This document shows, piece by piece, positions 8,709 to 61,717 of a DNA stretch of 64,000 nt. Below the pieces are notes generated by a model. That model searched no databases and was not told the DNA's origin. It was given only the letters and a program-made list of their open reading frames with translations. Each line of letters opens with the position of its first letter. The first letter of the stretch is position 1. Origin of the DNA: Aegilops tauschii subsp. strangulata (Eukaryota; Streptophyta; Magnoliopsida; Poales; Poaceae); NCBI RefSeq assembly GCF_002575655.3, contig NC_053040.3, positions 358,916,267 through 358,980,266 of the forward strand, given 5' to 3'. The translations under genes and the position numbers were made by a program.

Positions 8709-8812
8709 TGCCGTAGTTTGCTTTTTATCCGTCAGATATAGATCGGACGGTCTATATTGCAAGATGGCAGGCATACCATCATCACCAACTCAGTTTTTAT
8801 AAGAGTAGAAGT

Positions 8813-8832
8813 AGATAGATAGATAGATAGAT
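8813..8832. repeat. (GATA)n microsatellite in repeat A
   Basis: A run of five GATA units. Copy B has a shorter run at the matching place (about 25947-25962), so this locus is length-variable between the two copies. Confidence 0.9.
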
Positions 8833-20900: not shown

Positions 20901-21409
20901 ATGTCGTCGCTTTGAATGGTGTATACGGAACGCAAAAAAGTCTGGAGTTGTAATAAGTTTAAAAAATGAAGTGCCCATGTAACAGATGAGTTCTCGTCAG
21001 AAACCCTGATACTTCGAAAGAGATTGTCCAGTTTGTACACGAGATGCGTCCAGTTTTCGCCGTGACACTCTCTACTCTTTTGCACATGCTATGCGGGCGA
21101 AATGATGATACCATGCCAAGTTCCAACATTTTCAAAGTTCATTTTGTAGTGATTTTCAATTTCACCGTCATTTAGCTCTCTAAACAAATCGGTAAATGAC
21201 TGAAAAACAGCAAATGATGTCAAAACGTGTTGGAAATTGATGACGTCGCTTTGAATGATGCATACTGAACGCAAAAATAGGCTGGAGTTCAAATAAGTTT
21301 AAAAAACATTGAAGTGCCCGTGTAACAGATGAGTTCTCGTCCCAAACCCTGATACTCCGAAAGAGATTGTCCAGTTTGTACACGAGATGCGTCCAGTTTT
21401 CGCCGTGAC
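17096..21409. repeat. Higher-order repeat 2: two 2150-bp copies
   Basis: About 17096-19259 matches 19246-21409 at an offset of 2150 bp; I saw one clear substitution (19028 against 21178). The first copy overlaps the right half of higher-order repeat 1, so the two events happened in succession with almost the same step size. Confidence 0.85.
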
Positions 21410-38921: not shown

Positions 38922-39974
38922 CACTACAAAAAAATACACTTCCGTGATGATACGTGTTTGTCACAGTAGGTCACGTTTTCTGTCATGCATGTACATCCAT
39001 GACAAATTTATGACAGAATCAAGATAGTCATACCTGTGCTGTCTTAGAAGTGTTCCATGACATTACCAAAATTATCATCATGGAAGTGTCCACTTCCATG
39101 ACGATAAATCGCGCGTCACAGAAGTGCTTTCGTCAAGGGTGACCGACACATGGCATCCACCGTAACGGAACGCCGTTAAGCTATCGGGTCCGGTTTTCGA
39201 TCCGATAACCCGTTAACAGCCCCGACCAATGGGGATTTTCCACGTGTAAAATCATCATTGGCTGGAGGAAACACGTGTTGGCTCACCGTTGGGACAGATG
39301 TCATCCACTCATTGGACCCAAAGCGCCAATGATACGTCGACATGTGGCACGGCCCAACAGAGGCCCATTCCTGTGAAAAGGCCGGCCTGTTTGACTTGGT
39401 CAAAAGGTGGCGGGCTGGCCCACGGCAAGCCTGTTAACGGCCTGTTCGCATATAGCCCATTTACAGCCCGCTAACCCAGGGCCCGTTTACGGCCTATCCG
39501 AATTAGGCCCAGTAGCGTCATCTGGGCCGTCCAATATAATTCCAGCCCGTTTTAACCTCCGGCCCATGTATGGCCCATGACGTATTTCGACCCATATGAG
39601 TCCCTTTGTAACTCTTGGCCCATTAATGGATCGTGATGAAACCGGCCGTAATGAACAATGTATCGCTTTATACCCATTAGCGGCCCATTATTCCATTGGG
39701 TCGTTTCCAGCCCGTGTTACCTTTCGGCCTTTTGAGGGCCCATTTATTCTTGGGCTCATTTCCAGCATTCGGTTACTTACGGCCCGTTACTGGCCTTTTC
39801 TGTTTGTGTGCCAAATTCAGCCCGTGGATACAGTCGGCCCGTTTGTGGCCCGTTAATCTGTTGGGCCATTTTCATAGCATCATCAAATACGGCCTATTAA
39901 AGGCCCGTTATGGTCAGCCCATAAAACCTACGATTTCCACTCTAGCCCATTTACGGCCCCTTATATGGCCCGTA
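38922..39974. repeat. Left subterminal region of the large CACTA
   Basis: The first ~400 bp are shared, inverted, with the truncated CACTA ending at 35399. Then GGCCC-containing motifs such as TTACGGCCCGTT and CGGCCCATTA recur every 15-30 bp up to 39974. These direct and inverted copies are likely binding sites of the element's TnpA-like protein. Confidence 0.7.
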
Positions 39975-40205
39975 CAAGGCCCATAGATGAGATGGTCCGT
40001 AGAAGGCCCATGGACCCGACGGCCCATAGAAGGCCCATCGATCCGACGGCCCATAGAAGCCCATGGATCCGCTGGCCCATAGAAGGCCCATGGATCCAAC
40101 AGCCGATAGAAGGCCCACGGATCCGACAGCCCATAGAAGGCCCACGAATCCGACGGCATAGAAGGCCATGGATCGTCCGTCCCGTAGATGGCCCATGGAT
40201 CGTAT
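39975..40205. repeat. ~27-bp minisatellite (CCATAGAAGGCCCATGGATC type)
   Basis: About eight imperfect units of 24-27 bp. Because the unit is near 27 bases it encodes a nine-residue periodic peptide on the minus strand (DPWAFYG-like), which I regard as accidental. Confidence 0.85.
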
Positions 40206-40554
40206 GTCCTGTGGAGGGCCATGGTCACTAGAACGTTTGGGCGAGTTGGCCCCCGTTTGAACGATATAGCATATTCAAAGAATTATCCTACTCTATACTA
40301 TCACCTCTAAAAAACATACACTATACAATAAAGAGACTAAGGCATAGAAACGTAGAATAATCCTACACTATACAATAAAGAAATTACAGCCGATTATACC
40401 CACTGGGCATTATGGTTCGGCACCAGTGATAATAAAGCATACACAAACAACAAATTACATACACTGGGCAAATACAACTCATACATCATGGACGCGCATC
40501 AACATAGCTTACCATTTGAACTATAATATCTTCAGAAAATAGGATTGGCCGGAT

Positions 40555-41760
40555 TTAGATAGCATAAATTTCAGTCTGCAAAATCTCCAATTCCTTCGTT
40601 GTTACCTCAGTGTCTTGTTTCATTTTTTTGACTCCTGCATCTAATACCTGCATGTCCAGTCTCAACTTGTTGATTGTACGTTCATAATCATGTACACGTT
40701 GTCTTGCCACCTCTAGTTGATGCTCGAGAACATCAGCACATTCCAATTCCAATCCATAATCATTCGGTAATGGCCATGCCACACTGCTTGCAGATCTTTT
40801 TGTTGATGTCACTTCATCCTGAAATGTTTCTGTAAGTACATATGACTAGGGCAAAAATATAGTTACAACAATGAAGCGAGCAAGACAGACTATTTTGTAC
40901 ATGGCAAAACAGGACTAACAATAATGTTACACGTCATGAAGCATAAGCAGGTGATATTTTAAAAATTATAAAAAAGGTAGTCTATGCAGCCTGCATACAG
41001 AAATCTCTCTTAGCTCACCAGAGGAGCATGATGTTGGGGCCCAATCCAAAACACAGACACGTTACAAATTTAGACAACACGTTGTGTAGAAGTAAGCAAG
41101 CAGTTGGCTATTCTGTAGCTCAATTAAAGTCTTAGGGAGCATAATGAACAGCAGAGGATTTCATACAAACATACTACATCAAGCAAAACTATGCAATCAT
41201 TAGCCTAGTATAAACTAGATTGTGAGCCTCATTCAATAATAGTTGGTTAATAGACTTCAAAGCTTCAGGCACACTTCGGCAGAGTAATTAAATGATAAGG
41301 CCTTGAATTATGTCAACTAATAGTTATACAAGTACTCAACATCAGGCATCATTCTTTGGGCATCTCATTAACTGAGGACAAATAAAGCAATTGAAAAGAG
41401 CAAATTAACTATGCCTGAAACAAACAAGGAATTGAACTGTTGATTTGGATACAGCGACTTACCTTAACAGGTTGAAGAGGCTCAGCGCAGCTCCTACTTC
41501 TCTTGCAAGGCTCCTTCCTAACATCTTGTACTTGGAAATTCTCAATCTTATCTTCATTGCACCCCCTTTGCAAGGTGACACAAACTAGTTACTCGTCTCC
41601 TTGGAAGATAAATATGCATACTTTCCAGTCTGTGAACACAAAAGGATGAGATTATAACAAAACAACACCACATAATGAAACATGCTGCATCTCTTGCGCT
41701 TGCACACAATGAAATGAGCATTTACTATCTCTGCACTATGTAAAAACTAGGCATACCTTC
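40555..41760 (-). CDS. TnpA-like coiled-coil protein of the large CACTA, 3' exons
   Basis: The last exon is about 40819-40555 (after a TTTCAG acceptor: DEVTSTKRSASSVAW ... ILQTEIYAI, stop), with long heptad-like stretches (VLEHQLEVARQRVHDYERTI). The exon before it ends CAEPLQPVK at a GTAAGT donor near 41463 and has a basic CKRSRSC segment. Further upstream a piece near 41810-41757 (DIKVWLYTKVGSPRVP) ends at a GTATGC donor. The 5' end is not identified. CACTA elements commonly encode such a coiled-coil DNA-binding protein beside the transposase; this is inference from layout and from its relative at 33360-33704. Confidence 0.5.
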
Positions 41761-42305
41761 GAACTGGATCTCTAGGTACTCTTGGAGAGCCTACTTTAGT
41801 GTACAACCAAACCTTTATGTCACCTATGAGTTAGAAAAGGCCCCACTACAGCAGCCCTTAGTGTTTAAATCGTTGACAAGCTCTGTTAGAGTGTTAGGTC
41901 AAGAATAGCAGTAAGCAAAGCAAACAGTCCTAGTATGGCCGACTGATGCAAACAAGCAATTGAACAGATGTGTGAGCAAATCTTACATATCAAGAAAAGA
42001 AGCAAAGAAGGAGACTTAAAGACCATCAATTGACTGACCGGATTTAAGGGGCATTTAAACATCATGTGCAACGTATGAACTAACATAAACATTGCATATT
42101 CCAGATTCTACAATGGAATGCACATGTATTAGGTTATGCCATGTATGATGATGCCTAAATGTACACTATAGCAGGCAGGAGTGATTCATCATTGCACGCA
42201 CAATTGAATTGCAAGTTAAGGGCCAGTTCTATTCCGCCTTTTCAGGGCTTATTGTCAAAATAAGCCATAAAAGATGTAAAGAAGTCATTTTTGAGTTATG
42301 GGCTT
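41760..42305. other. Upstream part of the TnpA-like locus, no clear coding region
   Basis: AT-rich sequence between the recognisable exons and the Gypsy LTR. Possible further exons on the minus strand could not be established. Confidence 0.3.
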
Positions 42306-43209
42306 TGTCGGCGTTCTGGGAATGAAGGTCCCCAGACTTGCCTGCCTGCGGCCCACGGCGTGACTTTGCTAGCAGGCCTGTACGACCCATCTTCATCTAC
42401 AAGGCATTCAAGACCCTCGCGAGGGGCCAAGCCTCGCGAGGCGGACGACGCAAGACCTCCTCAGGAGCGGCCTCACCAGGCTGCCTCGCGAGGAGCAAAG
42501 ATATCAAGGTGGGGCAAACCTCGCGAGGCTCTCGTGACGTGAGCCATGACGATCAACACCAGGCGGGCGCCAGCGTGCGCAGCGTCCTTGTTTCCTCTTT
42601 GGTGCTAAGGAGGCCAGCGCAGGCGCGGAGTACCGAGGCGTCAGGCAAAGGTTTCCATATCGGTGCAACGAGACCAAGACCAGCAGGACGGCAAGACGGA
42701 GGTCACCATGGAGCCCAAGACGGTGTCACCACCAGAGCCTTTTGCAGGCGAAGACCGCTTTTGTCAGGATAGCTTGTACTAGCTTTCCCCTTTCAAATTG
42801 GCCGCCGTTGTTGGCTTCCTTCCCGCTCAATATTTGGGGAGAGGACCAGGGCCTATATAAGTAGAACTAGCCACCACGGTAGCGAGGGGAGCTTGATCTC
42901 ATCTGATCGAGTCCTCACCCCCACAAGTTCGACAAACACAAGAACACCTCAACCTCAGGAGGCTGTTCTTCCCCTTGTACTGTTCATCATCAGCCCAAGA
43001 GGCAATCCACCACCACCACACTGGAGTAGGGTATTACACCACAACGGTGGCCCGAACCAGTATAAATCTTGTGTCTTTGTGTTGCTAGTTCGTCGAGTTT
43101 GTCCGCGAGATCTTAGCGAGCTAGGGCGTAGATCGGTAGGAGGGAAAGAACTTTGCATGCACCCTAGAGTTCGAATCTTAAGGGTTTTGCCAGAACCCCA
43201 GATCCGACA
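42306..43209 (+). mobile_element. Gypsy 5' LTR, 904 bp
   Basis: The ends are TGTCGGCG and GATCCGACA, giving the inverted terminal TGTCGG/CCGACA. A PBS follows directly. A TATATAA promoter box lies at 42854-42860. Several CCTCGCGAGG palindromes occur in the first 250 bp (about 42415-42535). Confidence 0.88.
42854..42860 (+). promoter_or_regulatory. TATA box of the Gypsy LTR
   Basis: CCTATATAAGTAG in the second half of the LTR, about 350 bp before its end, the normal place for the element promoter. Confidence 0.65.
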
Positions 43210-43229
43210 TTTGGCGCGCCAGGTAGGGG
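43210..43229 (+). other. Gypsy primer binding site
   Basis: TTTGGCGCGCCAGGTAGGGG immediately follows the LTR. This is the usual junction text of several large plant Gypsy families, and it fixes the LTR end and the orientation. Confidence 0.8.
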
Positions 43230-43281
43230 TGCGCCGTAGCTTCCCTTCCGTCGATCGGCGCTCCGTCGCTCCGTCGTCTCC

Positions 43282-44549
43282 ATGGCGGACGCTCGCCGCG
43301 CTCGAGCTGAGCGACGAGCCGCCCTCACCACCCGCGTTGCTCAGACGGCTCCCGTCGGCGGGCCAACTCGTTGTTCCCCGTCGCCCGCCGCCAACGCCGC
43401 AACCGGCCCGGCGGGGAACGAGCGGCAAGCGTCCTTGCTGCACCCATCGGTGCGGCAGGACGGCCGCACCGCCACTCCGTCGTTGACCCCGGCCGGTTCC
43501 TCGTCCCACGCACGTCGCGCTCGCATGGACGTGCAGGCCGCGCTCCTCATGGCGAACGAACTCCTGTGCTACCTCCCGGTCGACGACCTCTACGAGGACT
43601 GGCTTGACCGCGTCGCCGAGCTCATCCGCGCCGCAGGGGGCTCCCCGGCGCTGTGCCTCTCTCTGCCTCGCCCTCCGCCAGCCACGGGCGACGTGGCTCA
43701 TGGAGCGCCTCCACCACCTCTGCCCCAAGACGGTGCCTTGGCGCCAAGGCGCGTGGCCCCATGGCACGATCCACCACGCCCGGTGCCCGCGCGTGAAGAG
43801 GGAAGCTGCCAAGAAATTCCTCGGCCGCGAGAAGCTGCACCTGCGCTCCCCGCGCCACCTCGTCAAGACCGCGCGCCACCCGCGGTGGCGGCACGCGGGC
43901 CTCATCAAGACCAAGCTCCACCTCCGAGACGGGCCCCGGCGACCACGGCCGGCTGCCGCGCCTTCACCCCCAAGCTTCGTAGCGTCGCCTGGCCGGGCAA
44001 GTTCAAGCCGGATCTGCCTCCTCGCTACAACGGCACCCTTGACCCCGCGGAGTTCCTGCAGCTCTACGAGCTGAGCATCGAAGCGGCCAACAGTGACGAG
44101 AAAGTCATGGCGAACTGGTTTCCTATGGCTCTCAAGGATGGTGCCCGCTCCTGGCTCCTGAACCTGCCGCATGGCTCGATCTCCTCCTGGGACGAGATGC
44201 GCGACCGCTTCGTTGCCAACTTCCAGGGCACTCGCGACCGCCCGCCGGCCGCGGGTGACCTGCGCCGCATCAAGCAACAACCAGGAGAGACTCTCCAGAA
44301 GTACATCTAGCGCTTCAACAACACCCCCCTCAAGATCCCCAAGGTGACGGATGAGGCCATCATCTCCGCATTGTCCGACGGCGTCCGCGACGTTAAAATG
44401 AAGGAAGAGCTCGCTATCCACGAGGAGCTATGCACATCTCAGGAGTTGTTCAACCTGGCAACGAAGTGCGCAAGGGCTGAGGAGGGGTGCCTTTCCCTCC
44501 TTGAGCTGCTAGCTGTGGGTGCAGAGGAGAAGAAGGCAAGGCCAAGGAC
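43282..44549 (+). pseudogene. Gypsy gag, with in-frame stop and frameshift
   Basis: The frame starts MADARRARAERRAALTTR. The retrotransposon gag core is clear at about residues 235-342 (WPGKFKPDLPPRYNG ... KDGARSWLLNLP ... WDEMRDRFVANFQGT ... GETLQKYI). A TAG at 44308-44310 interrupts it (usual text continues QRFNNT), after which RFNNTPLKIPKVTDEAIISA goes on in the same frame. A second disruption near 44520-44550 shifts to the frame of the next feature. No functional gag can be made without readthrough. Confidence 0.85.
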
Positions 44550-45899
44550 GTGAAGCGCAAGGAAGCAGCAGTGCTCGCAGCGGAGCCGGACACCAAGCGA
44601 GGCAGGGACCAGCCCGAGTCGTCCAAGAACAGCCGACCATTCTACGCCTTCCACAACCTGAACACCCACAACACCAGTGACTGTCAAGAGCTCAGAGCCA
44701 TTCGCGAAGGACGCTTCGGTCGACACCCCGAGCGCAGTGACCGGGGCTACGGCCGAGGAGGAGGACGTGGTGGCGGACGCTGGGACGACCGTGGCCCGTG
44801 CCAGGAGTGGCGCGACCGTCCTCGTGAGGACCGCTGGCAGGATCATCCTCGTGAGGGCGCCTGGAGAGACCAGCCTCGCGAGGACCGTCCTCAGGGCAAC
44901 GCCGGTCTTCCCCCGCTGCCGCCACCACCAAGAAGGAACAACGACCGCCATCAGGACGAGGGGGCTGGGGGCTTCCAGGAGCCGCACGCTATCGCCTGCA
45001 TCTTGGGCGGAGCCCAGGCCCCAGCCTCGCAGCGCATCTACAAACAGTTTGCTCGTGAAGTGAATGCAGTCCTCCCCAAGCTCGAGGCCACGCGCCCGCT
45101 CAGGTGGTCCCAGTGCGCCATCACCTTCAACTCGGCAGACCAACTCAAGTGCGCAGCCACCGCTGGCGCCCTCCCGATGCTTTGCTCACCAGCCATCAGC
45201 AACGTACAAGTCACCAAGACCCTCATAGATGGCGGCGCAGGGCTCAACGTCCTGTCCGTTGACACGTTCGACAACCTTCAAGTGCCCTATGACCAGCTTC
45301 AGCCTACCAAGCCTTTCTCAGGAGTGACCGACGGCTCCACCACACCGATAGGGCAGGTCCGCCTCCCTGTCACCTTCGGAGAACGCAAGAACTACTGCAC
45401 CGAGCTCATCAACTTCGACGTCGCGCACATCCGCCTCCCATACAACGCCATCCTTGGGTATCCAGCCCTGGCCAAGTTCATGGTTGTCACGCACCACGGC
45501 TACAACGTCCTCAAGATGCCGGGAAGCGGTGGTATCATCACGGTCCCATGTGAAGAGAGAGATGCGGTGTGCTCCCTCGAGCGCGCCTTCCAAGCTGCGG
45601 CAATCGATGACCCCGACAACAAAGGCGAGGGCCCTCCTGAGGCCTTCCTCAAGAAGAAGAAGCAGCTGCGCCGCGCAGGATCTCAGGAGGATGGCGTCGT
45701 AACTGGAACCTCGACAGGATCAGCGCCCGCTCCAGGGGCGCCTCCCTCCATCGCAGAGGAAGGCGCGCCCGGCGCCCTCCTCGGGCAGGGCTCGGGGGCT
45801 CTCTTCTGGAGAGCCTTAGACCTTGCTAAAAAACGAGGGAGGCGATTGGGCACCACTTGGAGGCGTGCTTTGCAGCACGTTTCCCTCAGGAGAATATAG
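44550..45899 (+). pseudogene. Gypsy gag C-terminus and aspartic protease, truncated before RT
   Basis: The frame is open for 449 residues. It starts with a basic segment (FYAFHNLNTHNTSDCQELRA, the zinc-knuckle-like His/Cys stretch; Arg/Asp-rich repeats follow). The protease has LIDGGAGLNVLS at about residue 225, where DGG stands in the D-(S/T)-G position, then IPLVTFGE-like and YNAILGYPALAKF segments. The frame ends (SLRRI) where the reverse transcriptase should begin. Confidence 0.8.
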
Positions 45900-46310
45900 G
45901 GCAAGGAGTGCCCACCACTCAGGAATTCATCACCAAGACCACTCAGGAACTGCAAGACGCAAGGGCCATGCGCGGCGACCGCCGCTCACGAGAAGCAGCT
46001 CCCCATCCAGGCGAGGATGCCGGGCTGCGCATCTGCATCGACGTTCTAGGGCTCAACAGGGCCACATCTCAGGAGCTTTTCTGGCCTTCGTGCGTGGGCC
46101 GTTGCGAGGGTCCGCCACACATCTATGGTTCGCATGCCCTTCGGCTTGCCGAGCATGTCATCAGCCTATCAGCACAACATGCGGCATGTCCTGGCGGCTC
46201 AGGAGGCCAGGCACCACGCCATCCTGGCAGAGATGGAGATGGTCCACAGGGAACCACCTGAGCCCCCAGAGCCTCCCGAGGCTCAGGGCCCCGGTGGCTC
46301 GTGAGGAGCC
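45900..46310 (+). pseudogene. Reverse-transcriptase remnants of the Gypsy element
   Basis: Short pieces in different frames resemble RT: GLRICIDVLGLNRAT (the R-x-C-x-D-x-x-x-L-N region) near 46020, and a segment reading MPFGLPSM near 46132. The catalytic YxDD motif and everything after it are missing, so most of pol was deleted internally. Confidence 0.65.
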
Positions 46311-46662
46311 ATTCCTTCGCCGCGTACCTTCAGCTGCCCCAACTCTCCTTCGTCAACAAACCAGGTGACATTTTCCAAGTTTGTTTAGCTGGGAGCGCCC
46401 CTCGGGCTGCATTATTCCCAGGCAAAGTGGGTCCGTCCCTGTGGCATGTATCCCTTTTGCATATGTCTTTAGCTTACCTTGTTGGGGGCGCCCCTCGGGC
46501 TGCATCATCCCCAAGCCGCTTGGGCCTGACCTTGTGGCATGTATCTTTCTGCATTTACCCAAGCTGATTTGCCTTCCATGCTTAATCTGCCTATGATTAT
46601 CACCTGCTCGATAGCCACCCGCCACGGGTACATCCCTTCATCATGCAATTCGCTTGCGCGTT

Positions 46663-46672
46663 AAAAGGGGGG
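46663..46672 (+). other. Possible polypurine tract
   Basis: AAAAGGGGGG upstream of the Gypsy 3' region would serve as plus-strand primer site. In this group a further stretch lies between it and the 3' LTR; the LTR itself is absent. Confidence 0.4.
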
Positions 46673-46793
46673 CTCCTGAGCATCGTGACTCAGGAGCTCT
46701 TACTGGCTCTCCAGCCCTCACCCCCTGGCCTTGACCACGGCATCACGACCTGGCATACCAGCGGCGGCTGAGCTCGCTCGAGGGCCGGCGGGT

Positions 46794-47325
46794 ACTACCT
46801 GTAGTACAGAAGTACTCCAACTGAGGATTGATGCCCGGGACAAAATGTGTCACAGCCGCTGGATGAAAATTTGATGGTGCGGGGCGTGTGGTGTCATGGG
46901 TTCGTGCGGCGTCGTGGGAATCGCGTGTGGCTGTGGTAGAAACTTGATGCTCGCCCCATTTAAGGTGGCCCACATGTCATGCACACAAAGGCAGAGGGGC
47001 GGTGCGGCCGAGAGGGGTGAGGTGCACGTCGGGGGACGTGGTGCCGTGGGTTGGAGTGGCGTCGTGGGAATCGCGAGTGGCAGTGGATGAAACGTGATGG
47101 TTGCTGTAGTTGAACATCCACGGGCAAGCTGTCATGTCTACGGACACATGCATTGCATACCGATCACTGTAAGGAGTAGTAGAGAAAGCTAGGCGGATAA
47201 ATAGTTCCTTATAGTCAAGCGGACCCACGCTACTACTTGTTCCAAAGACATGCACACCATCGAAATAGTCCATCTATATCAATATACATAGAGAGGGAAT
47301 ATTTTTTTACAAGAGAGGAAATAGT
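46794..47325. other. Intergenic sequence with a short diverged duplication
   Basis: Two related segments share GGCGTCGTGGGAATCGCG and GTGGTNNCNTGGGTT (about 46880-46950 and 47030-47100). No gene is seen. It forms the 3' flank of the exonuclease gene. Confidence 0.45.
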
Positions 47326-48030
47326 TCATCCATCCATAATGCCCTGCTGCTGGTGCAGCATCTTCTTCTTCTTGTTGTTGTTCTCATTTTCTGTGGGAGA
47401 CGGCTTCACAACAAGCTCTCTGGACCTTGCAGCTATCTCGAAACTCACACGGGCATCGAGGGCAGCATATTTTATCCGCTCGTACGTCAAGGGATAATTC
47501 TCCCATCCAGACGACCTTAATGCCAGCGTCTCGTCACCCTTTTGAAGATTTGTTCCTAGCACAAAATTTGCTACGTCGAATTGGGATGGTGTCGGTTTAT
47601 CACAATCTTCTACAGGAATTTTTATTCTGGTTTGTAGGTCAGCGATGCTTTTCAAATCAAGGTTGTACGGCTCCAACTTCTGTTTGTCCCCTGCGATGGC
47701 TGCCCCACAGAAGTATATGTCCTCCTGAGACAAGAAATTGTGAAGCTCACCTGGTATGGTGGGCGTGTGCATGATGTGGTACACCAAAACATCATCTTCG
47801 AGGCACAGCTGAAGGACAACAGCGCATTGGATCTTCCTAGTGGCATGCCCCGTGTACTCTGCGTCGAGACCGCTGACATTCATCTCCACCTTTTGGAGGG
47901 AGTTGGATAGATTGTTGATCCACTTCCGAACAACCCTTGGGTGGTCGGTGACTGTGGCAACTATGCTCAACGAGCCTTCGACGAGGACATGTTGGACGCT
48001 AAAAACCTGCATCTCGATCTCTTTCGCCAT
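47326..48030 (-). CDS. Werner-type 3'-5' exonuclease domain protein, 234 aa, intact
   Basis: This single-exon gene encodes a DnaQ-like (DEDDy) exonuclease domain of the Werner/RNase D type, expected to remove nucleotides from 3' ends of DNA or RNA. Visible motifs: Exo I GLDAEY with D56 and E58; Exo II around GAAIAGD with D115; Exo III YAALD with Y188 and D192, so all five catalytic residues are present. The family in grasses is usually a 200-230-residue protein without a helicase, which fits. The tail (about 211-234) is Asn/Lys/Gln-rich and may hold a nuclear signal. A minus-strand TATAAATA at 48104-48112 lies about 75 bp before the ATG. It is divergent from the F-box gene and lies inside the large CACTA, so it is probably captured. 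The substrate is unknown. Confidence 0.85.
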   Translation of the reverse strand: MAKEIEMQVFSVQHVLVEGSLSIVATVTDHPRVVRKWINNLSNSLQKVEMNVSGLDAEYTGHATRKIQCAVVLQLCLEDDVLVYHIMHTPTIPGELHNFLSQEDIYFCGAAIAGDKQKLEPYNLDLKSIADLQTRIKIPVEDCDKPTPSQFDVANFVLGTNLQKGDETLALRSSGWENYPLTYERIKYAALDARVSFEIAARSRELVVKPSPTENENNNKKKKMLHQQQGIMDG

Positions 48031-49115
48031 TTGGAACTGCTGGACTGGAGGGCTATGGTTTGGAGAATTAGGATTAGATGGCTAGTCTAACTAAAGAAGA
48101 TGATTATTTATAGGGGCTTCGGAATTACTCCAGGAGGATGTGAAGAGGTTAAAACAATGTGAATGCAGTGTGGTTTGGATGCAAATGAAGACCGAGGAGT
48201 AGTGAAAAAGCCGAGGAAAATCGGTTCCCGATGGAGAAGTAAATGGGAGAAGTTATGCGCATGCATGAGGAGAGGTGCGGTGGTTTGACTGCTGCATGCA
48301 ATGGATTGGACGGGCTCTTCGGTTGCCTTTTCTCTCTCCCACGCGCACAGAGTGGCCCACTTGCATGCTGCAGTTTATTGGCTGGAGTCTGGCTGCAGCT
48401 GCTCATGCATACGCTAATTAATGCTGTGAATGCGGGGCATGGAGGGAAATGTGCGTATGCAAAAGGGTATATACGCAGACTAATTAGAGAAATACTGAAA
48501 AAAGTTATGCACAGACAAAAGAGGACCGGAGGGATTACTACTCATGTTCCTTCTACGGTTAAGGAATATGTGGTTATCCTCAAAAAAGAAAAGTCCTTCG
48601 CGCTTCCGCATGCACGAGAATTTGGTTCTGCCCGCAATATGGATGATAGCTGGAGGATGAAGTGAACCCAGAGGCATGCTAGCACGAGAGTGTACTCATG
48701 TTCCTACTACTCCTACTAGTAGTAGTAGTACAACTGTGGTACACTTGATGGTCAAAATACTATTATTCATCCGGTCCTCATAGTGAAGTGACAAGACCCT
48801 GCGCCCGAGGTGACACCAGTCCAGGTAGCGTGTCCGGGTTACCAAAGTCAGCCTCACCTTGTGCACTGTGCAGTCACTGTCACCGCCGCTGTATAGCATG
48901 CCTCGCCTCGTTTCCCTCTCCCTAGCACCACTCCATCTCCATATCCATCTCGCTGGAGATCCTGAGGTCACTCTTCATTGTCTCACTGTGCCCCCTCATA
49001 CCCTCGCCTCGCTCGCCTCCTCGAGTACCACTATTCCCTCGCTAGCCGCTCCAGCACCGACAGCCTTCTCCCCCGTAAATCAAGCCCCCCAAAACCCCAC
49101 CTTCCAAACTCCACC
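48031..49115. other. Divergent intergenic region between exonuclease and F-box genes
   Basis: About 1.1 kb between two start codons facing away from each other. It has the exonuclease TATA box at 48104-48112 and an AGT-repeat (TAGTAGTAGTAGTAC, about 48717-48731). No coding sequence is recognised. Confidence 0.5.
48104..48112 (-). promoter_or_regulatory. TATA box of the exonuclease gene
   Basis: The minus strand reads CCCTATAAATAATC, 74-82 bp upstream of the start codon at 48030, a normal distance for a plant gene with a short leader. Confidence 0.6.
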
Positions 49116-51234
49116 ATGGCCGAACGCGAACCGCGCAAGATCCATATGAGCCGCGATTGGAGCAATCTCCCCAGTGATGTCCTCGACCTCTGTTGTTCGT
49201 GTATGGATATGTTGAGCGCCCTGCGGCTGGCTGCATGCTCGAGGGGCATGCACACGGCCATCATCGAAGCGAGGCCAAAGCTTTTCAAGACACTCTGCTT
49301 GCTGCTATCTAGTCTTGCGAGATTGGCTCACCATGATACGGAGGCGTACATGATGCCCCTCGACTTCAATCCGATCTCCATTAGCCAAAACTTCTTTGCA
49401 GGTATGTAGTGGGTCGTCGTACATCATTTCCCTCGACTTCGATCCGATCACCATCGCCCGAAACTTCTTGGCAAGTATGTACTGGGTCGGCATGAACTCC
49501 CACTGGATGGCTGCCTTCAGAGAAGACGGTAAAAAGTTGGTGCTCGTGAACTTCCAGACCTCCCATGAGATTATCCTTCCTCCATTGGATTATATAGAGT
49601 TTTACCATCGCGGTCCTAGTCATCTAGATTACCATGTTAGTTGGACGGACCTTGTTTTGCAGAAGATTGTAATCCGGCAAGTGCCCACACGACATGCGAA
49701 TTACGCAGACTTCAAGCTAATTGCCTTGTTCGGCCGCGGACTCGCCTATCTTTACGCCGGTGCCTTCCTTAGCTGGAGACAACTCAGCTCGCAGTGGATC
49801 ATCGTCGAATCTGATACACACTTCTGTGATGCTATTGAACACAATGGCATCATCTACGTGATCGACAAAGCAGATGGCACCACGTATTACTGGGACGGCG
49901 CGTGTAAGTTGTTTCCGCCTCATATTAATGATGACGCCATGACACTGTTTGAACTTTTTGTGATGATTGGCATATCCCTGTTTGAGCAGAATTTGAGTAG
50001 AACTATGGCAATGTATTAGAGACGCCGAAAATCAGCTATATTTGGAATGAGTTAATTCATGCGATTGTGATCATGTCATTACAGCCAATTTGTACCCCTG
50101 AATAATCAAACGGTTAGGAATATATGGATATTCTCCCTATTTTACAGTAATCTGTATACTACTACTAAATATGAGTGTGTATCAATGGCCATGTTAGTTT
50201 CCTCATTTTCATGATGTAGAAACATGCACCACACTGTTGGTTTCATCTAACCATACATTAGGGAAGTAAATGTGCATATGGAGAACTCTATATTTGGAAG
50301 TAGTGAAATCCTGTAATGCTTACCATGTGTACATACCTATATTCGCCCTTCAGCAATCAATGGCTAGAATAATATCCTCACAAAAATTTTTCCCATAGAA
50401 CACGAGTATATAACAATGCATGCTCTGTTAGTTACCTTGAAGAATTTGTTTGTGAGGACAGAACATGAGTCAATAACATGCATGACATGGTAGTTTCCTG
50501 TGAAGAATCGATTGCGAGATAACATGAGTATAAACATGCATGGCACTTCTATATTTTCGAACCCAGTATACATTTCCCTGTATTTTCCTCCCAGTTCCAA
50601 CAGGGACATATCAATGCTGTTTCTTGCATTATCCTACTCATACTCTGAACAATGCTGATCTTACATTAACAATGCCTGTCCTTTTTGATATGATGCAGTG
50701 TCCCTACAGTTACTGCCCTTTGTAATCACACCACCTTTGCCAAAAACATGGAAGCACAACTGGTTCCACGCTCGATCAGACGACGGCAAAAGACTGATGA
50801 TCATTCGGACACATGAGCCAGAAAAGCTATATTGCAAAAACCCCACTGTATACAAGCACCGTGAAATACGTGAGTATCCGGACAGTGGCTGTTACGTCTA
50901 TGAGCAGGATACCAGCTTGTTGGGGCCTTCAGGATTTTTTAGTTGGAGGCGGGTAAACAGCCTTGGTTCACACTCTCTGTTTCTCGGACTCAATTATCCG
51001 ATTAACCAGGAGATCACCGTTGGCAAGGACCTTGATGGCAGAGAGACTCTGTTTGCTATGGAAAACTGTGTCTACACGGCGAGCCCTAGGAGTTCGGGAG
51101 CAAACTCCCCTGATTGTCAACGATACAGCCTGCAGCCAAAAGAAGGTGAGAATGACAAAGGCATCCAGATTAACTTTGATCCTTGGATGTCTCAATTACG
51201 ACAGGCAGTGATGTGGTTCAAGCCTTCAGGTTGA
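49116..51234 (+). pseudogene. F-box/DUF295 gene, probably disrupted by a 73-bp duplication
   Basis: Grass F-box proteins with a DUF295/KIB-type beta-propeller usually act as substrate adaptors of SCF ubiquitin ligases. The start is ATG 49116 in a good context (CCACCATGG). The first exon has an F-box near residues 14-50 (DWSNLPSDVLDLCCSC). The DUF295 part runs from about 49424 (YIISLDFDPITIARNF, WMAAFREDGKK) to a donor GTAAGT at 49904; exon 3 is 50699-51234 with YPINQEITVG and ETLFAMENCVYTA typical of the C-terminus, and the splice phase fits. Between the F-box and DUF295 parts a 73-bp tandem duplication (49346-49491) puts a TAG and a frame change into exon 1. Splicing between the GTATGT and AG inside the repeat would not restore frame. 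Otherwise the gene looks well preserved. Confidence 0.75.
49346..49491 (+). repeat. 73-bp tandem duplication inside the F-box gene
   Basis: Units 49346-49418 and 49419-49491 match at about 60 of 73 positions. Each in its own frame encodes the same motif (LDFNPISISQNFFAGM and LDFDPITIARNFLASM). Since 73 is not a multiple of three, the downstream frame is displaced by one base. Confidence 0.85.
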
Positions 51235-52043
51235 TAGGTAATTGGGCTGTTGCGTCGAAAGGGTGGAGTACTAGTGTCTCCGGATCATTGGTCGCTGAAG
51301 CGGGGCTGCAAATTATGATGGTGTTGGATCATCTCTTCGAATGACTTTGTTGTATTTGCTGCTTGTTCTGGATGGGTAGTTCTTTCTTTTGTTATGCATA
51401 GTCCTTGTCATTTGGTCATCCTCATCTATGTCACTCTTACTATGTAATAGTTGGCTCTGTTTAGAATGTCATTCTTGTCTGGATCACGAGAGTCTGAGCG
51501 CTGCAGATGGGTGCGTTTTGGTGGTGTAGCAAGACTTCTTATGAACTATCATGTCTTGCTGTTTATGTCAGTAGTAGTCACTAGTCAGTGTTTGAATGTT
51601 GTATATATCGTTGTTTCGAACTGTTTATTGTCTCGAACTACTGGTGGGCTAAATGAAGGCATCACCATTCTCCAGTGTTCAGAGTGTATCTCCTTTTTCA
51701 GGTTATATAATTTGAGCTCAGTGTCTTTTCGATGTTGTACACTTTTTTGGGCCAGTGAGGTGTCATTGAATATGGGCCGAGTAGTAACGCAATGCCAAAC
51801 AGGTCAATTATGACTCTCGGGCCGAGCTCTCCAAAAAAGAAAGAATAAGGACTCTTAAGCTGACATGTGGACGCCACCGGTGTTTTCGTGCGCTTGCGCG
51901 CCGAGAGCATATTGGCGCGTGTTTGAAATTCAAGCTACCTTTTCATCCCCAATCTCTTGCCCTCCCCCACCTCTGGAATCTCGATTCCTACTGCGGTTCC
52001 CCCAAATCCCCCTCCTGTACTCCCTGTACTCAAGCTCACTATC
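51235..52043. other. 3' flank of the F-box gene and upstream region of the DUF4283-like gene
   Basis: No gene is recognised. Plus-strand open frames (for example 51451-51813) lack any family pattern. The 3' end of the F-box transcript and the promoter of the next gene should lie here. Confidence 0.4.
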
Positions 52044-52912
52044 ATGTCGCCGGTCAACGCGGATCTCCGAGACGGAGATCTTGAGGTCCATCCTGCCATC
52101 GGTCGCTGCGTGTTGTCGCTCAACAGTGGCATGTCGGCGCTTGACGACCAGTTTGCCGGCAAAGTGCTGATGGTAACCATCAACGGCGACAGGCCTCCCG
52201 TCCCGCCGGACGACCTTGTCAAAGCTCTTGGCATTGCGCACGGCATCCAAATAAGTGACTTGCTCATCGAAGTCTGTCTGCCACCGGCTGATTTCTTCGT
52301 CAGGTTCCGAACAACTTTCGACTGGAGTTGTGTGTTTGAATCTTCCCGGCGTTTGTTCTGCGATGGCGCGCTGGTGAGCTTTGATCGGTGGCACCCAGGA
52401 TGGGGGTCGGTGCCCTCTGAGCTTGAGTTTTTAACAAAGCATACCTTCCACGGCATGCCTCGACGTGCTTGGTACGGCGAGTCCATGAATGAGCTTATCA
52501 ACGACCTTGGAGGTGAGCTCGTAAGTATGTTTGTTCCTCCAGACAACTGGGCTCTGACGGTTATGGCATGGATGAAGAAGCGTCCACCATGCCGAAGGTG
52601 ATTGGTGTTGAGATACCGGTGCAGGAACCGGGGTTGTACTATTCATCGCCATCAAGTCCGCCGCGGACCACGTTAGGGATGTACCTGTATCGAGTGTTCG
52701 TGCATGTCGAAGAAGTGGTCAATCCATCAATTGAAGTCCTGCCGCCGCCGCTGGTGCCAGGGTCCGTCGACGACGTCCATTACAGGAGTCAACATCAGAC
52801 TTTCCCCGTGTTGCTCAGAATGATGGATGGCACAGGGCCTACTACATCACGCGGCAGAGGCCACTGCTTCTTTGGGACAAGAGGCAGGGCTGGCTGCCTG
52901 GATGTGCTCTAG
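52044..52912 (+). pseudogene. DUF4283-like gene with a 1-base frameshift
   Basis: The likely start is ATG 52044 (MSPVNADLRDGDLEVHPAIG). The first 178 codons are open (FFVRFRTTFDWSCVFESSRR, ALVSFDRWHPGWGSVPSELE). At about 52577 the copy at 56895 has one more C (AAGCCGTCC against AAGCGTCC here), so this copy lost a base and stops soon after. The following frame (from about 52580, PKVIGVEIPVQEPGLYYSS ... to TAG 52912) is the original C-terminal part. The family resembles grass DUF4283 proteins, whose function is unknown. The assignment is from pattern memory. Confidence 0.6.
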
Positions 52913-53340
52913 TTTGAGGTAACAACTGAATCTTGTCAGATACTAGTTAAATCCGAGCTATGGGTGTGAAGCATTGATGTGCCAGTACATTTGATTGTGA
53001 CCTATTCTAATTTTGTACCTGAACTTTTTTTAGAAAGGGATGTACGTCAACTTAATGTGCTAGCACAACTTATTGTGTTGTCTGTCTGTTTTCACGTTCA
53101 AGATATTTCCCTGTCATTGATAAAGACGATGAACCGTTATGTACGAGTTCGTTGGTTTCAACATAGTCCTACCCGTGGCGATCCACTGCTTCCATCCTGA
53201 TTGTGCCGCCTGCGTGAAATTTTTGTATGCAAGTTCAGTGTGCTATGATGTTCTATATGATTGTGTTAACTATATAAGTTTTTACTGAGCATCAGCAATG
53301 CATATGGCTGAAAGATGTATTTACGAGCATCGACTGATGG

Positions 53341-53370
53341 GTCTCTCTCTCTCTCACACACACACGCACA
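53341..53370. repeat. (CT)n(CA)n microsatellite, unit C
   Basis: CTCTCTCTCTCTCACACACACACG; the counterpart in unit D (57719-57766) is longer and has a GATA interruption. Confidence 0.85.
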
Positions 53371-55859: not shown

Positions 55860-56460
55860 CGTTCGAAATGGGATCCTGTTCATCGAGAGGGGTCTAGCGT
55901 ACCACAAAACAGAGGAAACGGACCTCCTACGGTCAAAACGGGGGTCCTGTGGATCGGGAGGGGTGTGGCGTACTGCAAAACAGAGGAAACGGACTTGTGT
56001 TGGAGCGCTATGGTCGAAACGGGGGTCCTGTTCATCAGGAGGGGTGTGGCGTACCGCAAAACGGGACTCCACGGGATACTGTTCATCTCCACCGTCGACC
56101 CCCTCCAGCCTCCACGGGCTACTATTCATCCACCGTCGACCTCCTCCAGCTTCCACCTGCGACTGTTCATCCACGGGCTCCTGTTCATCCAGCCTCCACC
56201 GCGCGCTACTCCACCGGCTACTATTCAACCAGCCCTCTCCACGGGCTCCTATTCAACCACCCCTCCACAGGCTACTGTTCATCCAGCCCTCCACGGGGTC
56301 CTGTTCATCCAGCCCCAACCGGCTCGATCGATCGGGGGTCCTGTTCATCCAGAGGCAACACCACGGGGTCCTGTTCATCCACCCCCACCAGGAACTGTTC
56401 ATCCAACCCCCCCAAGCAGCGCTCACTGTTCATCCAGAGGAAGCATCGATCGACTTCAGT
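55860..56460 (+). repeat. CTGTTCATCC motif cluster, unit C
   Basis: Fourteen or so CTGTTCATCC or CTATTCANCC motifs, all on the plus strand, with irregular spacing of 20-100 bp. They lie in the subterminal zone of the CACTA element, where transposase-accessory binding sites are expected. Confidence 0.75.
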
Positions 56461-56894
56461 TAGCAGCAGTAGCGAAGGAATCGCTCGATCGGGTTCAGTT
56501 AACAGCCATCGATCGATCGCTCGGGTTCAGTAACGCGTAGCCTGCAGTGCAATCGCTCGGGTTCAGTTAGAGCCCAACGCCTCGCTCGGGTTCAGTTAGA
56601 GCCCCACGCCTCGCACCCACGCGCGTGCGTGTACGAGAGAAACGCGCATCGCTCGGCCCCGACCACCCACCGTAACCGGGAACACCCCGATATTTTCCTC
56701 GCCCTTGCTTCTACCACGGTTTTTTCCGTCATGGACGGCCCAAAGAATGTCATGCAGCTGCGTCTCCGGCCCGCCCAGGACGAAAAGCCCATTTTCTGTC
56801 ATGATTTTTTGTCATAGAAGTACGACCCCACCACATCTATGATGATACCAGGTTTGGTCACAATTATCGTCATAGAAGTGTCATAGAAGTGTCG

Positions 56895-57282
56895 TAAGTA
56901 TGTTTGTTCCTCCAGACAGCTGGGCTCTGACGGTTGCATGGATGAAGAAGCCGTCCACCATACCGAAGGTGATTGCTGTTGAGATACCGGTGCAGGAACC
57001 GGGGTTGTACTATTCGTCGCCACCAAGGCCGCCACGGACCACGTTAGGGATGTACCTGTATCGAGTGTTCGTGCATGTCGAAGAAGTGTCAATCCATCAA
57101 TCGAAGTCCTGCCACCGCCGCTGGTGCTAGGGTTCGTCGACGACGTCCATTACAGGAGTCAACGTCAGACTTTCCCCATGTTGCTCGGAACTATGGATGG
57201 CACATGGCCTACTCCATCGCGCGGCGGAGGCCACTGCTTCTTTGGGAGAATAGGCAGGGCTGGCTGCCTGGATGTGCTCTAA
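56895..57282 (+). pseudogene. DUF4283-like gene, duplicated 3' fragment
   Basis: Copy of 52522-52912 without the first 160 codons. It keeps the C lost in the upstream copy (AAGCCGTCC) but has lost a G later (GAAGAAGTGTCAATCC against GAAGAAGTGGTCAATCC), so each copy carries its own disruption. The stop corresponding to TAG 52912 is TAA here. Confidence 0.75.
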
Positions 57283-60200
57283 TTTGAGGTAACAACTGAA
57301 TCTTGTCAGATACTAGTTAAGTCCGACCTATGGGTGTGAAGCACTGATGTGCCAGTACATTTGATTGTGACCTGTTCTAATTTTGTACCTAAACTTTTTT
57401 TAGAAAGGGTTGTACGTCAACTTAATGTGCTAGCAGAACTTATTGTGTTGTCTGTCTATTTTCGTTGCACAACATTCAAGATATTTCCCTGTCATTCGTA
57501 AAGATGATGAACCGTTATGTACGAGTTCGTTGGTTTCAACATAGCCCTACCCGTGGCGATCAACTGCTTCCATCCTGATTGTGCCGCCTGCGTGAAATTT
57601 TTGTATGCAAGTTCAGTGTGCTATGATGTTCTATATGATAGTGTCAACTATATAAGTTTTTACTGAGCATCAGCAATGCATATGGCTGAAAGATGTATTT
57701 ACGAGCATCGACCGATGGGTCTCTCTCTCTCTCTCTCTCTGATACACACACACGCACACACGCACAAGTGGGACCCGTTCAATTATTTCTTTGCTCGTGA
57801 CAGCTTTTAATTAGGTTCCACTATAATCTAATTTTTTTCTTAAGTTATTAATTGAGCTCAATGACTTCAAAAAGTTGTATAGAAGCCTTGTTTGGGCCTT
57901 TCCGGCGTCGCTGAATGTGGGCTGAGTAGCCATGTTAGGTTGTATTGTACTACACAGGCCTTTTTTTCAACATCAGCAATGCAACTGGGCCGACAGTTGT
58001 ACACAATATCCGGGTCAACTTGTTATTCTCCGCCCCGGTGGGCTGCAAACTTTCCTAGGAGGTATGCATTCGGCTTAACAAGAAAATGGACTTTAAGAAA
58101 TAATAAATGGGATGTAATTATAATAACTGGGCAGTAACTATAAAAAAATGCACCAAACGCGTAATTAGTTTAAAAAATATATTATTTTTGGAATTTGAAA
58201 ATTTTAATTTCATTACTTGTTGCGCGCGCAATATTTCGCTGGATTTTAACGTAATACAAATTATTTTGAAATTATATTTAATCTGACTAGAAATTTCGGA
58301 TCCCATAAAAATGTGGGAATTTTTTTTTGAATTCTGTTTTGAGCGGTTGGTTGAAATTATTAATCATTGTCCTAGCTAGAAAATGGGCTGTACTTTTAAC
58401 AAACTGTAAATGGGCTGTAGTAAATTCCATTAGAATTAAAAAATGGGTTGTACATTCTTACAAATCACAAATGGGCTATATGTTCTCTGCCACACACTTG
58501 TGTGCCTTCTAAGTTGACGCGTCCCCTGAAAAAAACTAAGTTGACGCGTATGCAAGGCTTTGTCAACAACACACGGTTCTGGCAGATGTGGCCATTGGAT
58601 GTCCATCCAACAGATGTCCTGCTTCTTCTTCAATCTCGGATACTCTTGCTTCAGCCGCCCAAAAAATGATTCCTCCCACTGACATCTGGGGTGCACCGTT
58701 TCGGAGGCTGACTTGTGGGCCTACTAAGTTGACGCGTACCAAGGGCTTTGTCAACTTAGTCAATATAAGCGATTCTAGCTGTAGTGACCGTACGATGTCC
58801 ATCCAACGGCCGTAGTGCTTCTTCAACCTCTGGTTTTCTTGCTCCAGCCGCCCAAAGCAGCGCCGGTCGTGCCGCGTGCTCCTGCTTCCCGTGGCCGGCT
58901 GTGATGTCGCGGAGGCCTCACCGGCCCCTACTACTCACACCGCTAGCCAGGTCATCCCTCTACTCACCCACACCCCCTGTTATTCCGCGGCGACGGCAGC
59001 CTCACACCGCAGCCGAACCAGTGAACACTCGTACTCCTCTCCGCGCGGGCTTCCACTGCCGCGTCTTCCCTGGCTCCGCGTCGTCCCCTTCCTAGGCCAC
59101 GCCATCGTCCACTGCCCTGGTGCTCTCGGCGCAGCGTGGTCAACATGGTCAAGGAACGGCTTCCATCGGACGTGGACTGTACGTGGAGAAGCTGACAGCT
59201 GGGTCCACGACGGCAGCAAGGAATTGCCTCCTTATTACGCGGAAAATAATGATTCCTCCACCTGACAGCAGTGACCCACCAGACGTGCCACCGTATTTCA
59301 AGAAAAAAAATGTTTCCCCCTGACTGCTGGGACCCACCAGACGGGCCACCGCATTGCGTGGAAAAAACGTTCCCCCCGCTGTCAGCTCGGACCCATCGGA
59401 AGTGCGTCCTTATTACGCACAAAAAAATGAATACTCCCCCTGCTGGTTGGGACCCACCTTGGTGGCAGGCTAACTTGTGGGCCTACTAAGTTGACGGGGA
59501 TGGAGTGCTTTGTCAACTTAGTCAATATGAACGATTCTAGCTCCAGTGACCGTACGATGTCCATCCAACGGCCATAGTGCTTCTTCAACCTCTGGTCTTG
59601 TTGCTCCAGCCGCCCAAAGCAGCGCCGGTCGTGTCGCATGCTCCTGCCTCCCGTGGCCGGCTATGCTGCCGCGGAGGCCTCACCACCCCCTACTACTCCC
59701 ACCGCTGGCCAGGCCATCCCTCTACTCACCCACACCCCCTGTTATTCCGTGGGGACGGCAGCCTCACACCGCAGCCGAACCAGTGAACCCTCGTACTCCT
59801 CTCCGCGCGGGCTTCCACTCCCGCGTCTTCCCCGGCTCCATGTCGTCCCCTTCCTAGGCCTCGCCATCGTCCACCGCCCTGGTGCTCTCGGCACGGCGTG
59901 GTCAACGTGGTCAAGGAATGGCTTCCATCGGACGTGGACTGTACGTGGAGAGGCTGACAGCTGGGTCCACGGCCGCAGCAAGGAAGTGCCTCCTTATTAC
60001 GCGCAAAATAATGATTCCTCCACCTGACAGCGGGGACCCACCGGACGGGCCACCGTGTTTCACGAAAAAAACGTTTCCCCTGACTACTGGGACCCACCAG
60101 CTACATCTTCGCACGCAAGGAAGTGCGCCCGGGGAAAAAATGATTCGCCCCCTCACTACTGGGACCCACCAGCAACATCTTCACACGCAAGGAAGTGCCT

Positions 60201-60594
60201 GACAGTCGGGACCCACCTGGTCAAAGCGTACGTAGCGTTGTCATTCTAGTCGCGAATATGTACATACATACTGGTCGATGTAGAGGCGCGCACGTGTCGT
60301 AGCAGAGGCGCGCACGTAGCATGTACACGTACGTACAGCGGCCAGGGTGCAAGAAAGTAAATACGGCCACGTACGTACATAAGGGCGGGGGCTCGTGTAC
60401 ATGGCTGGGTCGCAATGGAGAAACCTCGTCGTTGTCGTGTTCATGGGGAGCCAACCGGCTGGGTCGGAACGGAATGCGTCGTCGTGTTCATCGGGAGGGC
60501 TTGGACGGAACAGCCGATGGAAACGAGGCCTGGCGTACCGCAGAACCAAGGAAACGGCCTTGTGTTCGACCGGCCACGTTCAAAACAGGATCTT

Positions 60595-61215
60595 GTTCAG
60601 TGGGAGGGGTCTAGCGTACCGCAAAACGGAGGAAACGGTCCTCCTACGATCAAAACGGGAGTCCTGTTGATCGGGAGGGGTGTGGCGTACAGCAAAACGG
60701 AGGAAACAGACTTGTGTTGGAGCGCTACGGTCGAAACAGGGGTCCTGTTCATCGGGAGGGGTGTGGCGTAGCGCAAAACGGGACTCCACGGGATACTGTT
60801 CATCTCCACCGTCGACCCCCTCCAGCCTCCACGTGCTACTGTTCATCCACCGTCAAACTCACCCAGCCTCCACCTTGCGACTGTTCATCCACGGGCTCCT
60901 GTTCATCCAGCCTCCACCGCGCGCTACTCCACCGACTACTGTTCAACCAGCCCTCTCCACGGGCTCCTGATCAACCAACCCTCCACGGGCTACTGTTCAT
61001 CCAGCCCTCCACTGTCTACTATTCATCCTGCCCTCCACGGGGTGGTCCTGTTCATCCAGCCCTCCACGGGGTCCTGTTCATCCAGCCCCAACCGGCTCGA
61101 TCGATCGGGGTCCTGTTCATCCAAAGGCAACACCATGGGGTCCTGTTCATCCACCCCCACCGGGAACTATTCATCCAAACCCCCCAGCAACGCTCACTGT
61201 TCATCCAGAGGCAGC
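60595..61215 (+). repeat. CTGTTCATCC motif cluster, unit D
   Basis: Counterpart of the cluster at 55860-56460 with the same order of motifs and a few extra copies around 60985-61085. Confidence 0.75.
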
Positions 61216-61654
61216 ATCGATCGGCTTCAGTTAGCAGCAGTAGCGAAGGAATCGCTCGATCGGGTTCACTTAACAGCCATCGATCGATCGCTCGGGTTCA
61301 GTAATGCGTAGCCTGCAGTGCAATCGCTCGGGTTCAGTTAGAGCCCAACGCCTCGCTCGGGTTCAGTTAGAGCCCAACGCCTCGCACCCACGCACGTGCG
61401 TGTACGAGAGAAACGCGCATCGCTCGGCCCCGACCACCCACCATAACCGGGAACACCCCGATATTTTCCTCGCCCTCGCTTCTACCACGGTTTTTTTCGT
61501 CATGGACGACCCAAAGAATGTCATGCAGTTGCGTCTCCGGCCCGCCCAGGATGAAAAGCCCATTTTCTGTCATGATTTTTTGGCATAGAAGTAGGACCCC
61601 ACCATATCTATGACGATACCGGGTTTTGTCACAATTATCATCATAGAAGTGTCA

Positions 61655-61717
61655 TAAGTATGACAGAAAAAATTTCGTTCGGCCCAAAATGTCACGGATG
61701 TGTCTTTTTTTGTAGTG
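61655..61717. mobile_element. Right terminus of the 22.8-kb CACTA
   Basis: The sequence ends GTGTCTTTTTTTGTAGTG. Apart from the short terminal repeat, it differs from the left terminus (38922-39300), so the two ends of the element are asymmetric. Confidence 0.85.

What the first reader, a model, noticed from the sequence alone, without database searches (positions are those of the whole stretch)
38922..61717. A 22.8-kb CACTA transposon carrying an exonuclease, an F-box/DUF295 and a DUF4283-like gene
Matching terminal repeats (24 of 26 bases) and a CAT duplication delimit one element that encloses three gene-like sequences of host type plus a TnpA-like gene and a Gypsy insertion. Gene capture by plant CACTA elements is known, but three unrelated genes including an intact DEDDy exonuclease in one element would be unusual. 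The exonuclease keeps all five catalytic residues, suggesting recent capture or selection.
Basis: partly seen in the sequence, partly recalled or inferred. Interest (0 to 1): 0.9.

Follow-up and report, generated by a model that had tools for sequence, protein, structure and literature searches.

The report
Gene-carrying CACTA transposon, high-copy family
A 22.8-kb jumping DNA element in a wheat-relative genome does carry three gene-like passengers, but the same three-gene package sits at many other places in that genome, two of the three genes are broken here and the best-looking one shows no sign of selection in the copies compared, so this is a slightly damaged member of a large family rather than a rare capture.

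Summary
In detail: 38922-61717 is one CACTA insertion (24/26 matching ends, CAT duplication). Joining its flanks gives back a coding sequence of another mobile element, gapless in all 23 database proteins whose alignment spans the junction. The reading as an unusual, recent multi-gene capture fails. The whole cargo block (exonuclease, F-box/KIB1-4 = DUF295, DUF4283-like) recurs contiguously at 94-95% in 20 of 24 other scored places of the same genome (3600 first-look candidates). The exonuclease gave 1303 candidates; the 39 scored others are 95-97% identical over its length. Left arm, cargo and right arm are linked in the same order elsewhere (12 links, 0 in wrong order or strand); the right terminus lay where predicted in 3 of 3 cargo copies. 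The F-box gene is broken by a 73-bp duplication shared with the one other copy read there; the DUF4283-like gene is frameshifted. Thirteen exonuclease copies show changes at neutral proportions. Peculiar to this copy: a tandem duplication of the right arm, and a short interior with a truncated Gypsy remnant. CACTA-borne 3'-5' exonuclease in wheat was already published (Daron 2014, PMC4290129).

The parts
38919..38921 (.). target-site duplication CAT, left
38922..38947 (+). left terminal inverted repeat (24 of 26 bases match the right one)
38922..42305 (+). left arm; 39 other scored copies in the genome at 93-96%, 11 of them matching from base 1 or 2 to 3384; in the sister copy L019 the match ends exactly where the Gypsy LTR begins here
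40558..40845 (-).
42306..46784 (+). truncated Gypsy remnant: one LTR about 42306-43209, gag frames 43240-44307 and 44505-45896, no second LTR in the window; right border placed by the C1 copy of the cargo
46785..52910 (.). cargo module found contiguously elsewhere in the genome (46861-52910 was the query; left border 46785 from the C1 copy)
47326..48030 (-). DEDDy (WRN-like) 3'-5' exonuclease ORF, 234 aa, all five catalytic residues, TATA-like CTATAAATA in the 90-bp leader
49116..49409 (+). F-box exon ending in a stop after 97 codons, within a 73-bp tandem duplication (49345-49489)
49396..51234 (+). KIB1-4 (DUF295) propeller in two exons with an inferred intron 49904-50698; in another frame than the F-box exon
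51865..52909 (+). DUF4283-like gene, broken by two frame changes relative to P0048
52519..56891 (+). first copy of the tandemly duplicated right arm, lacking the terminus
56892..61717 (+). second copy of the right arm with the real terminus
61692..61717 (-). right terminal inverted repeat
61718..61720 (.). target-site duplication CAT, right
61713..62150 (-). matched first part of the interrupted gene of another mobile element (P0096 alignment); continues at 38919-38731

Best explanation
This is one copy of a high-copy Triticeae CACTA transposon family that acquired a block of host-type genes (exonuclease, F-box/DUF295, DUF4283-like) before this copy arose, and spread with it. The cargo moved passively because it lay between the two ends. 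Shown: a single insertion with a CAT duplication into another element's gene; the same cargo block at many other places; left arm to cargo and cargo to right arm linked in the same order elsewhere; the break in the F-box gene shared with another copy. Inferred: the order of events and the mechanism. A longer element lost most of its interior in this copy, where a truncated Gypsy remnant now lies; the right arm was tandemly duplicated by a join at 8 bp of shared sequence (TAAGTATG); cut-and-paste at the outer ends was done by a transposase supplied from elsewhere.
For: Borders and empty site. Cargo block: 20 of 24 other scored places match contiguously at 94-95% (19 starting at query base 1-21, one at 141, all to 6050) and 4 match in part, over all seven large contigs, with 3600 first-look candidates. 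Exonuclease: 39 of 39 other scored places at 95-97% over 793-795 of 795 bp, 1303 candidates. Linkage by coordinates: 7 left arms have exonuclease or cargo downstream and 5 exonuclease or cargo copies have a right arm downstream, 0 in wrong strand or order. Right terminus within about 115 bp of the predicted place in 3 of 3 cargo copies, each with different outer sequence. The C1 copy shares 46785-49988, has the 73-bp duplication without a gap (137 of 145 columns identical) and the same stop after 97 codons of the F-box exon. Interior: gaps from left arm to exonuclease or cargo of 12.1, 12.3, 12.7, 12.7, 19.1, 20.9 and 22.6 kb in linked copies against 5.0 kb here.
Against: No other element was read from terminus to terminus; the left and right linkages come from different copies and no left arm was linked directly to a right arm within 26 kb (0). 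The copy number is unknown: first-look candidates are not copies, and only 25-40 places per query were scored. The interior of the longer copies was not read, and none of the 150 scored Transposase_21 hits (of 19434 candidates) lies within 30 kb of any of 99 listed exonuclease, cargo or left-arm places, so a transposase inside this family is not shown. Parent genes were not identified, so capture from host genes is inferred from the domains and the inferred intron.
Confidence: 0.9

Rival explanations
1. A unique or recent capture of three unrelated host genes by this one element, with the exonuclease kept by selection.
For: Intact 234-aa exonuclease frame with all five catalytic residues and a TATA-like box; 9 of 13 exonuclease copies have a complete frame and 12 of 13 all five catalytic codons; mean pairwise dN/dS over 78 pairs by Nei-Gojobori without transition bias is 0.68; Daron 2014 reports most captured genes under purifying selection and 19 expressed.
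Against: The block recurs genome-wide. With the transition bias counted, private changes are 59 nonsynonymous to 27 synonymous and shared ones 16 to 6, against a neutral 72% nonsynonymous (p 0.47 and 1.0), with 5 private stops. Pairs with the window copy average dN/dS 1.13 and its private changes are 5 nonsynonymous to 0 synonymous. 3 of 13 copies have premature stops and one lost its stop codon. The two other genes are broken.
Confidence: 0.04
2. The exonuclease is a working accessory gene of the transposon family (helping excision or repair), kept under selection in a few active copies while most copies decay.
For: Many copies and many complete frames; Daron 2014 found the exonuclease in two CACTA families.
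Against: Shared changes among 13 copies are at the neutral proportion (16 to 6, a small sample). Among database relatives D192 is lost in 4 of 21, and the five catalytic columns are no more conserved than random sets of five columns (3411 of 10000 reach them).
Confidence: 0.06
3. A composite: two neighbouring CACTA elements whose outer ends moved the DNA between them in one step.
For: The right arm is duplicated and its two copies differ about as much as separate elements do (K2P 0.061); a second left-type end lies at 35399.
Against: Cargo with a single right arm and the same order exists at other places; no row of the 32 other scored right-arm places runs across both tandem copies; the first right-arm copy lacks a terminus.
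Confidence: 0.05

Closest known systems
CACTA-captured 3'-5' exonuclease in wheat families DTC_famc5 (Vincent) and DTC_famc6 (TAT), Daron et al. 2014, PMC4290129
   Same: Triticeae CACTA elements carrying a putative 3'-5' exonuclease in several copies; passages read and section 8.
   Different: The section gives 10 exonuclease copies on chromosome 3B, and 145 genes in 140 events, so mostly one gene each (my inference); here exonuclease, F-box and DUF4283-like genes form one block found at many places. No family reference sequence was at hand, so I cannot say whether this element is Vincent, TAT or another family, nor whether the two exonucleases are the same gene.
Caspar clade CACTA elements of wheat (PMC6097303, passages read)
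   Same: Large, high-copy Triticeae CACTA transposons.
   Different: Membership not tested; no Caspar sequence was compared.
CACTA elements with captured gene fragments in Chenopodium (PMC8978399, passages read)
   Same: CACTA elements with host-gene pieces and a 3-bp target duplication.
   Different: There short gene fragments beside a transposase gene; here a three-gene block with no transposase found in the frames scanned.

Membership tests
CACTA superfamily | terminal inverted repeats beginning CACTA | tested here: met
   24 of 26 bases
CACTA superfamily | 3-bp target-site duplication | tested here: met
   CAT on both sides; the empty site is gapless in 23 of 23 spanning relatives
CACTA superfamily | subterminal short repeats | tested here: inconclusive
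   27-bp repeats at 39967-40201 and repeats in the right arm, but no transposase-binding motif was tested
CACTA superfamily | Transposase_21 (PF02992) gene, needed only for an autonomous copy | tested here: inconclusive
   no match in 35 of 102 open frames of 70 aa or more from 38922-56900 (list) nor in the 8 frames; the other frames and the second right-arm copy were not scanned
Gene-carrying CACTA (criterion of Daron 2014: gene between two elements of one family, with a target duplication) | genes between two ends of the same family with a target duplication | tested here: met
DEDDy 3'-5' exonuclease, WRN-like | PF01612 domain above the curated score | tested here: not met
   19.5 bits against 23.6; the annotated relative P0043 (Werner Syndrome-like exonuclease, T. 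dicoccoides) passes with 37.4 bits
DEDDy 3'-5' exonuclease, WRN-like | sequence match to solved WRN exonucleases with the five catalytic residues | tested here: met
   E=1.6e-9 to 2e6l_A, residues aligned (which residues are catalytic is recalled); activity untested, so this is a resemblance claim
F-box/DUF295 (KIB1-4) gene | F-box and propeller in one reading frame | tested here: not met
   both domains found, but separated by a 73-bp tandem duplication and a stop
DUF4283 | PF14111 above cut-off | tested here: not met
   no hit in the window ORF; 14.7 of 27.2 bits in P0048
Vincent, TAT or Caspar families | sequence identity to the family reference | not testable with these tools
   no such reference library held

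The most novel reading that the evidence does not exclude
A multi-gene cargo block (exonuclease, F-box, DUF4283-like) became a fixed part of a CACTA family and spread to hundreds or more places in one diploid genome, the exonuclease perhaps serving the transposon in the few copies that are still active.
Probability: 0.07. Interest if true: 0.65.

Novelty: new member of a known kind. Interest (0 to 1): 0.28.

Why it matters
It shows how apparent genes are spread by CACTA elements in Triticeae genomes: an exonuclease ORF that looks intact and selected is one of many near-identical copies that, in the sample compared, drift neutrally. That warns against counting such ORFs as genes. The block (46785-52910) also gives a marker for tracing when and how gene cargo became fixed in a transposon family.

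Tried and rejected
Structure prediction of the exonuclease gave mean pLDDT 39 and was not used. The exonuclease protein found no relative in viral contigs or genome contigs, and the left arm DNA none in plasmids. Rfam found nothing above its cut-offs. Pairing the end at 35399 with 61717 was rejected: it has the other orientation and about 84-86% identity to the left end. Looking for cargo 10 kb inward of 20 other left ends and about 14-20 kb inward of 3 more found none, but this is a weak negative: in linked copies the gap from left arm to cargo is 12-23 kb, so the 10-kb looks could not have reached it. Transposase_21: none of the 150 scored hits lies within 30 kb of 99 listed places of this family; the nearest is 112 kb away. 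The flank gene looked Ulp1-like to me from memory; Pfam gave no match for its frame or for two relatives. The date of about 2.4 Myr for the right-arm duplication uses a substitution rate recalled from memory, and would be wrong if the two arms came from different elements.
Full report
What was checked. The finding claims one CACTA element at 38922-61717 with three captured genes. The ends match at 24 of 26 bases, and only these two places in the window reach that level. CAT lies on both sides. The strongest evidence is the empty site: with the element and one CAT removed, one minus-strand frame reads on through the junction. Of 42 relatives of that joined protein, 23 have an alignment spanning the junction and all 23 are gapless there, and the relative P0096 aligns to 62150-61713 and then 38919-38731. 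So the 22.8 kb lies as one precise insertion in a gene of another element. That gene carries two in-frame stops in the 182 residues used; neither its frame 38058-38630 nor two relatives had a Pfam match.

Anatomy. A left arm (38922-42305) is followed by a Gypsy remnant with one LTR and gag and no second LTR in the window. In the sister copy L019 the match to the window runs from the left end to 42305 at 94% and stops exactly where the LTR starts; what follows in L019 was not found after the remnant in the window, so this is not a simple insertion. The cargo comes next. The exonuclease frame (47326-48030, minus) resembles WRN exonucleases (E 1.6e-9) and has D56, E58, D115, Y188 and D192. The F-box exon (49116-49409) and the KIB1-4 exons (49396-51234, with an inferred intron) are in different frames because of a 73-bp tandem duplication. 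The DUF4283-like gene has two frame changes relative to P0048, and its domain label is below cut-off. The right arm is present twice in tandem, 52519-56891 and 56892-61717, with K2P 0.061 between copies; only the second has the terminus.

The same genome. The window lies in a 4.10-Gb assembly of 692 contigs, seven of them 497-654 Mb long. Size and number fit a diploid Triticeae genome, and Aegilops tauschii from memory, not from a call. The exonuclease with its leader gave 1303 first-look candidates; 40 were scored, the window and 39 others, the others at 95-97% over the whole query or all but its first one or two bases. The 6050-bp cargo block gave 3600 candidates; 25 places were scored, the window and 24 others. 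Of these 24, 20 match contiguously (19 from query base 1-21 and one from 141, all to 6050) at 94-95%, and 4 match in part. The C1 copy matches 46785-49988 at 95-96%; it has the 73-bp duplication without a gap and the same stop after 97 codons of the F-box exon, so that break is older than the split of these two copies. Left arms gave 8291 candidates, 39 others scored at 93-96%, 11 of them from base 1 or 2 to 3384. Right arms gave 29876 candidates; of 32 other scored places the best row of 25 begins at the base equal to 56892, and no row other than the window's own runs across both tandem copies.

Linkage. With these coordinates, 7 left arms have an exonuclease or cargo copy downstream in the right orientation (gaps 12.1-22.6 kb) and 5 exonuclease or cargo copies have a right arm downstream. 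The wrong-strand or wrong-order control gave 0 for every pair; left arm to right arm directly also gave 0 within 26 kb. At the place predicted for the right terminus, 3 of 3 cargo copies have it, with 0, 6 and 6 mismatches in 28 as scored without gaps, and different outer sequence. The window copy has 5.0 kb between left arm and exonuclease, mostly Gypsy remnant. I infer an internal deletion in this copy. What the longer interiors hold was not read; none of 150 scored Transposase_21 hits (of 19434 candidates) lies within 30 kb of 99 listed places of the family.

Selection. Among 13 exonuclease copies (the window and 12 of the 39 others, taken from the top of the list), 9 have a complete frame, 1 lost its stop codon and 3 have premature stops, one of these also lacking the ATG; 12 of 13 keep all five catalytic codons. 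Mean pairwise dN/dS is 0.68 over 78 pairs without correction for transition bias, and 1.13 for pairs with the window. With the bias counted, private changes are 59 nonsynonymous, 27 synonymous and 5 stops, shared ones 16, 6 and 0, against a neutral 72% nonsynonymous (p 0.47 and 1.0), and variable codon positions are 35, 33 and 41 of 234. These 12 are among the copies most like the window, so the sample is not random. In database proteins the five catalytic columns are not more conserved than random sets of five (3411 of 10000 reach them), and D192 is lost in 4 of 21. Neutral simulation to 22 amino-acid changes keeps all five residues in 1736, no stop in 1099 and both in 637 of 3000 runs. Intactness here is therefore no sign of selection.

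What is known. Daron et al. 2014 (PMC4290129; [quoted passage not shown] Searches for CACTA and exonuclease with gene capture and wheat, or with captured and Triticeae, returned only this paper. The searches with F-box or DUF295 listed 20 and 8 papers; I read passages of one of the 8 (PMC8002965) and of three of the 20 (PMC4290129, section 8 included; PMC13398682, none on this combination; the third is only the listing of PMC10004981, whose abstract start I saw), so absence of this combination from print is not claimed. DUF295 F-box genes number 234 in wheat in a table of PMC8002965.

Verdict. It is a member of a high-copy gene-carrying CACTA family with two features of its own, a short interior with a Gypsy remnant and a duplicated right arm.

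Noticed in passing
12879-23444: A tandem array with a 343-bp unit, about 10.5 kb long, with some 436-bp units.
   Followed up: partly
4173-9320 and 24051-26449: A 2.4-kb sequence present twice at 96-98%, the first copy split by a 2.7-kb insertion; the 343-bp array lies between the two. I did not recognise LTR ends.
   Followed up: partly
34964-35399: A second left-type CACTA end of the same family in the opposite orientation (84-86%); no partner right end found in the window.
   Followed up: partly
33112-33290 and 40354-40470: A short shared repeat (about 76-80%), also matched by left-end relatives such as L005 and L006.
   Followed up: no
56885-56900: The breakpoint of the tandem right-arm duplication shows the 8-mer TAAGTATG shared by both parent sequences, as expected of a microhomology join.
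   Followed up: partly
37021-37100: A CACTA-like start (CACTACTAGGGAAAACCCTAGTAGTAGCGC) that may be the end of the element interrupted by the 22.8-kb insertion.
   Followed up: no
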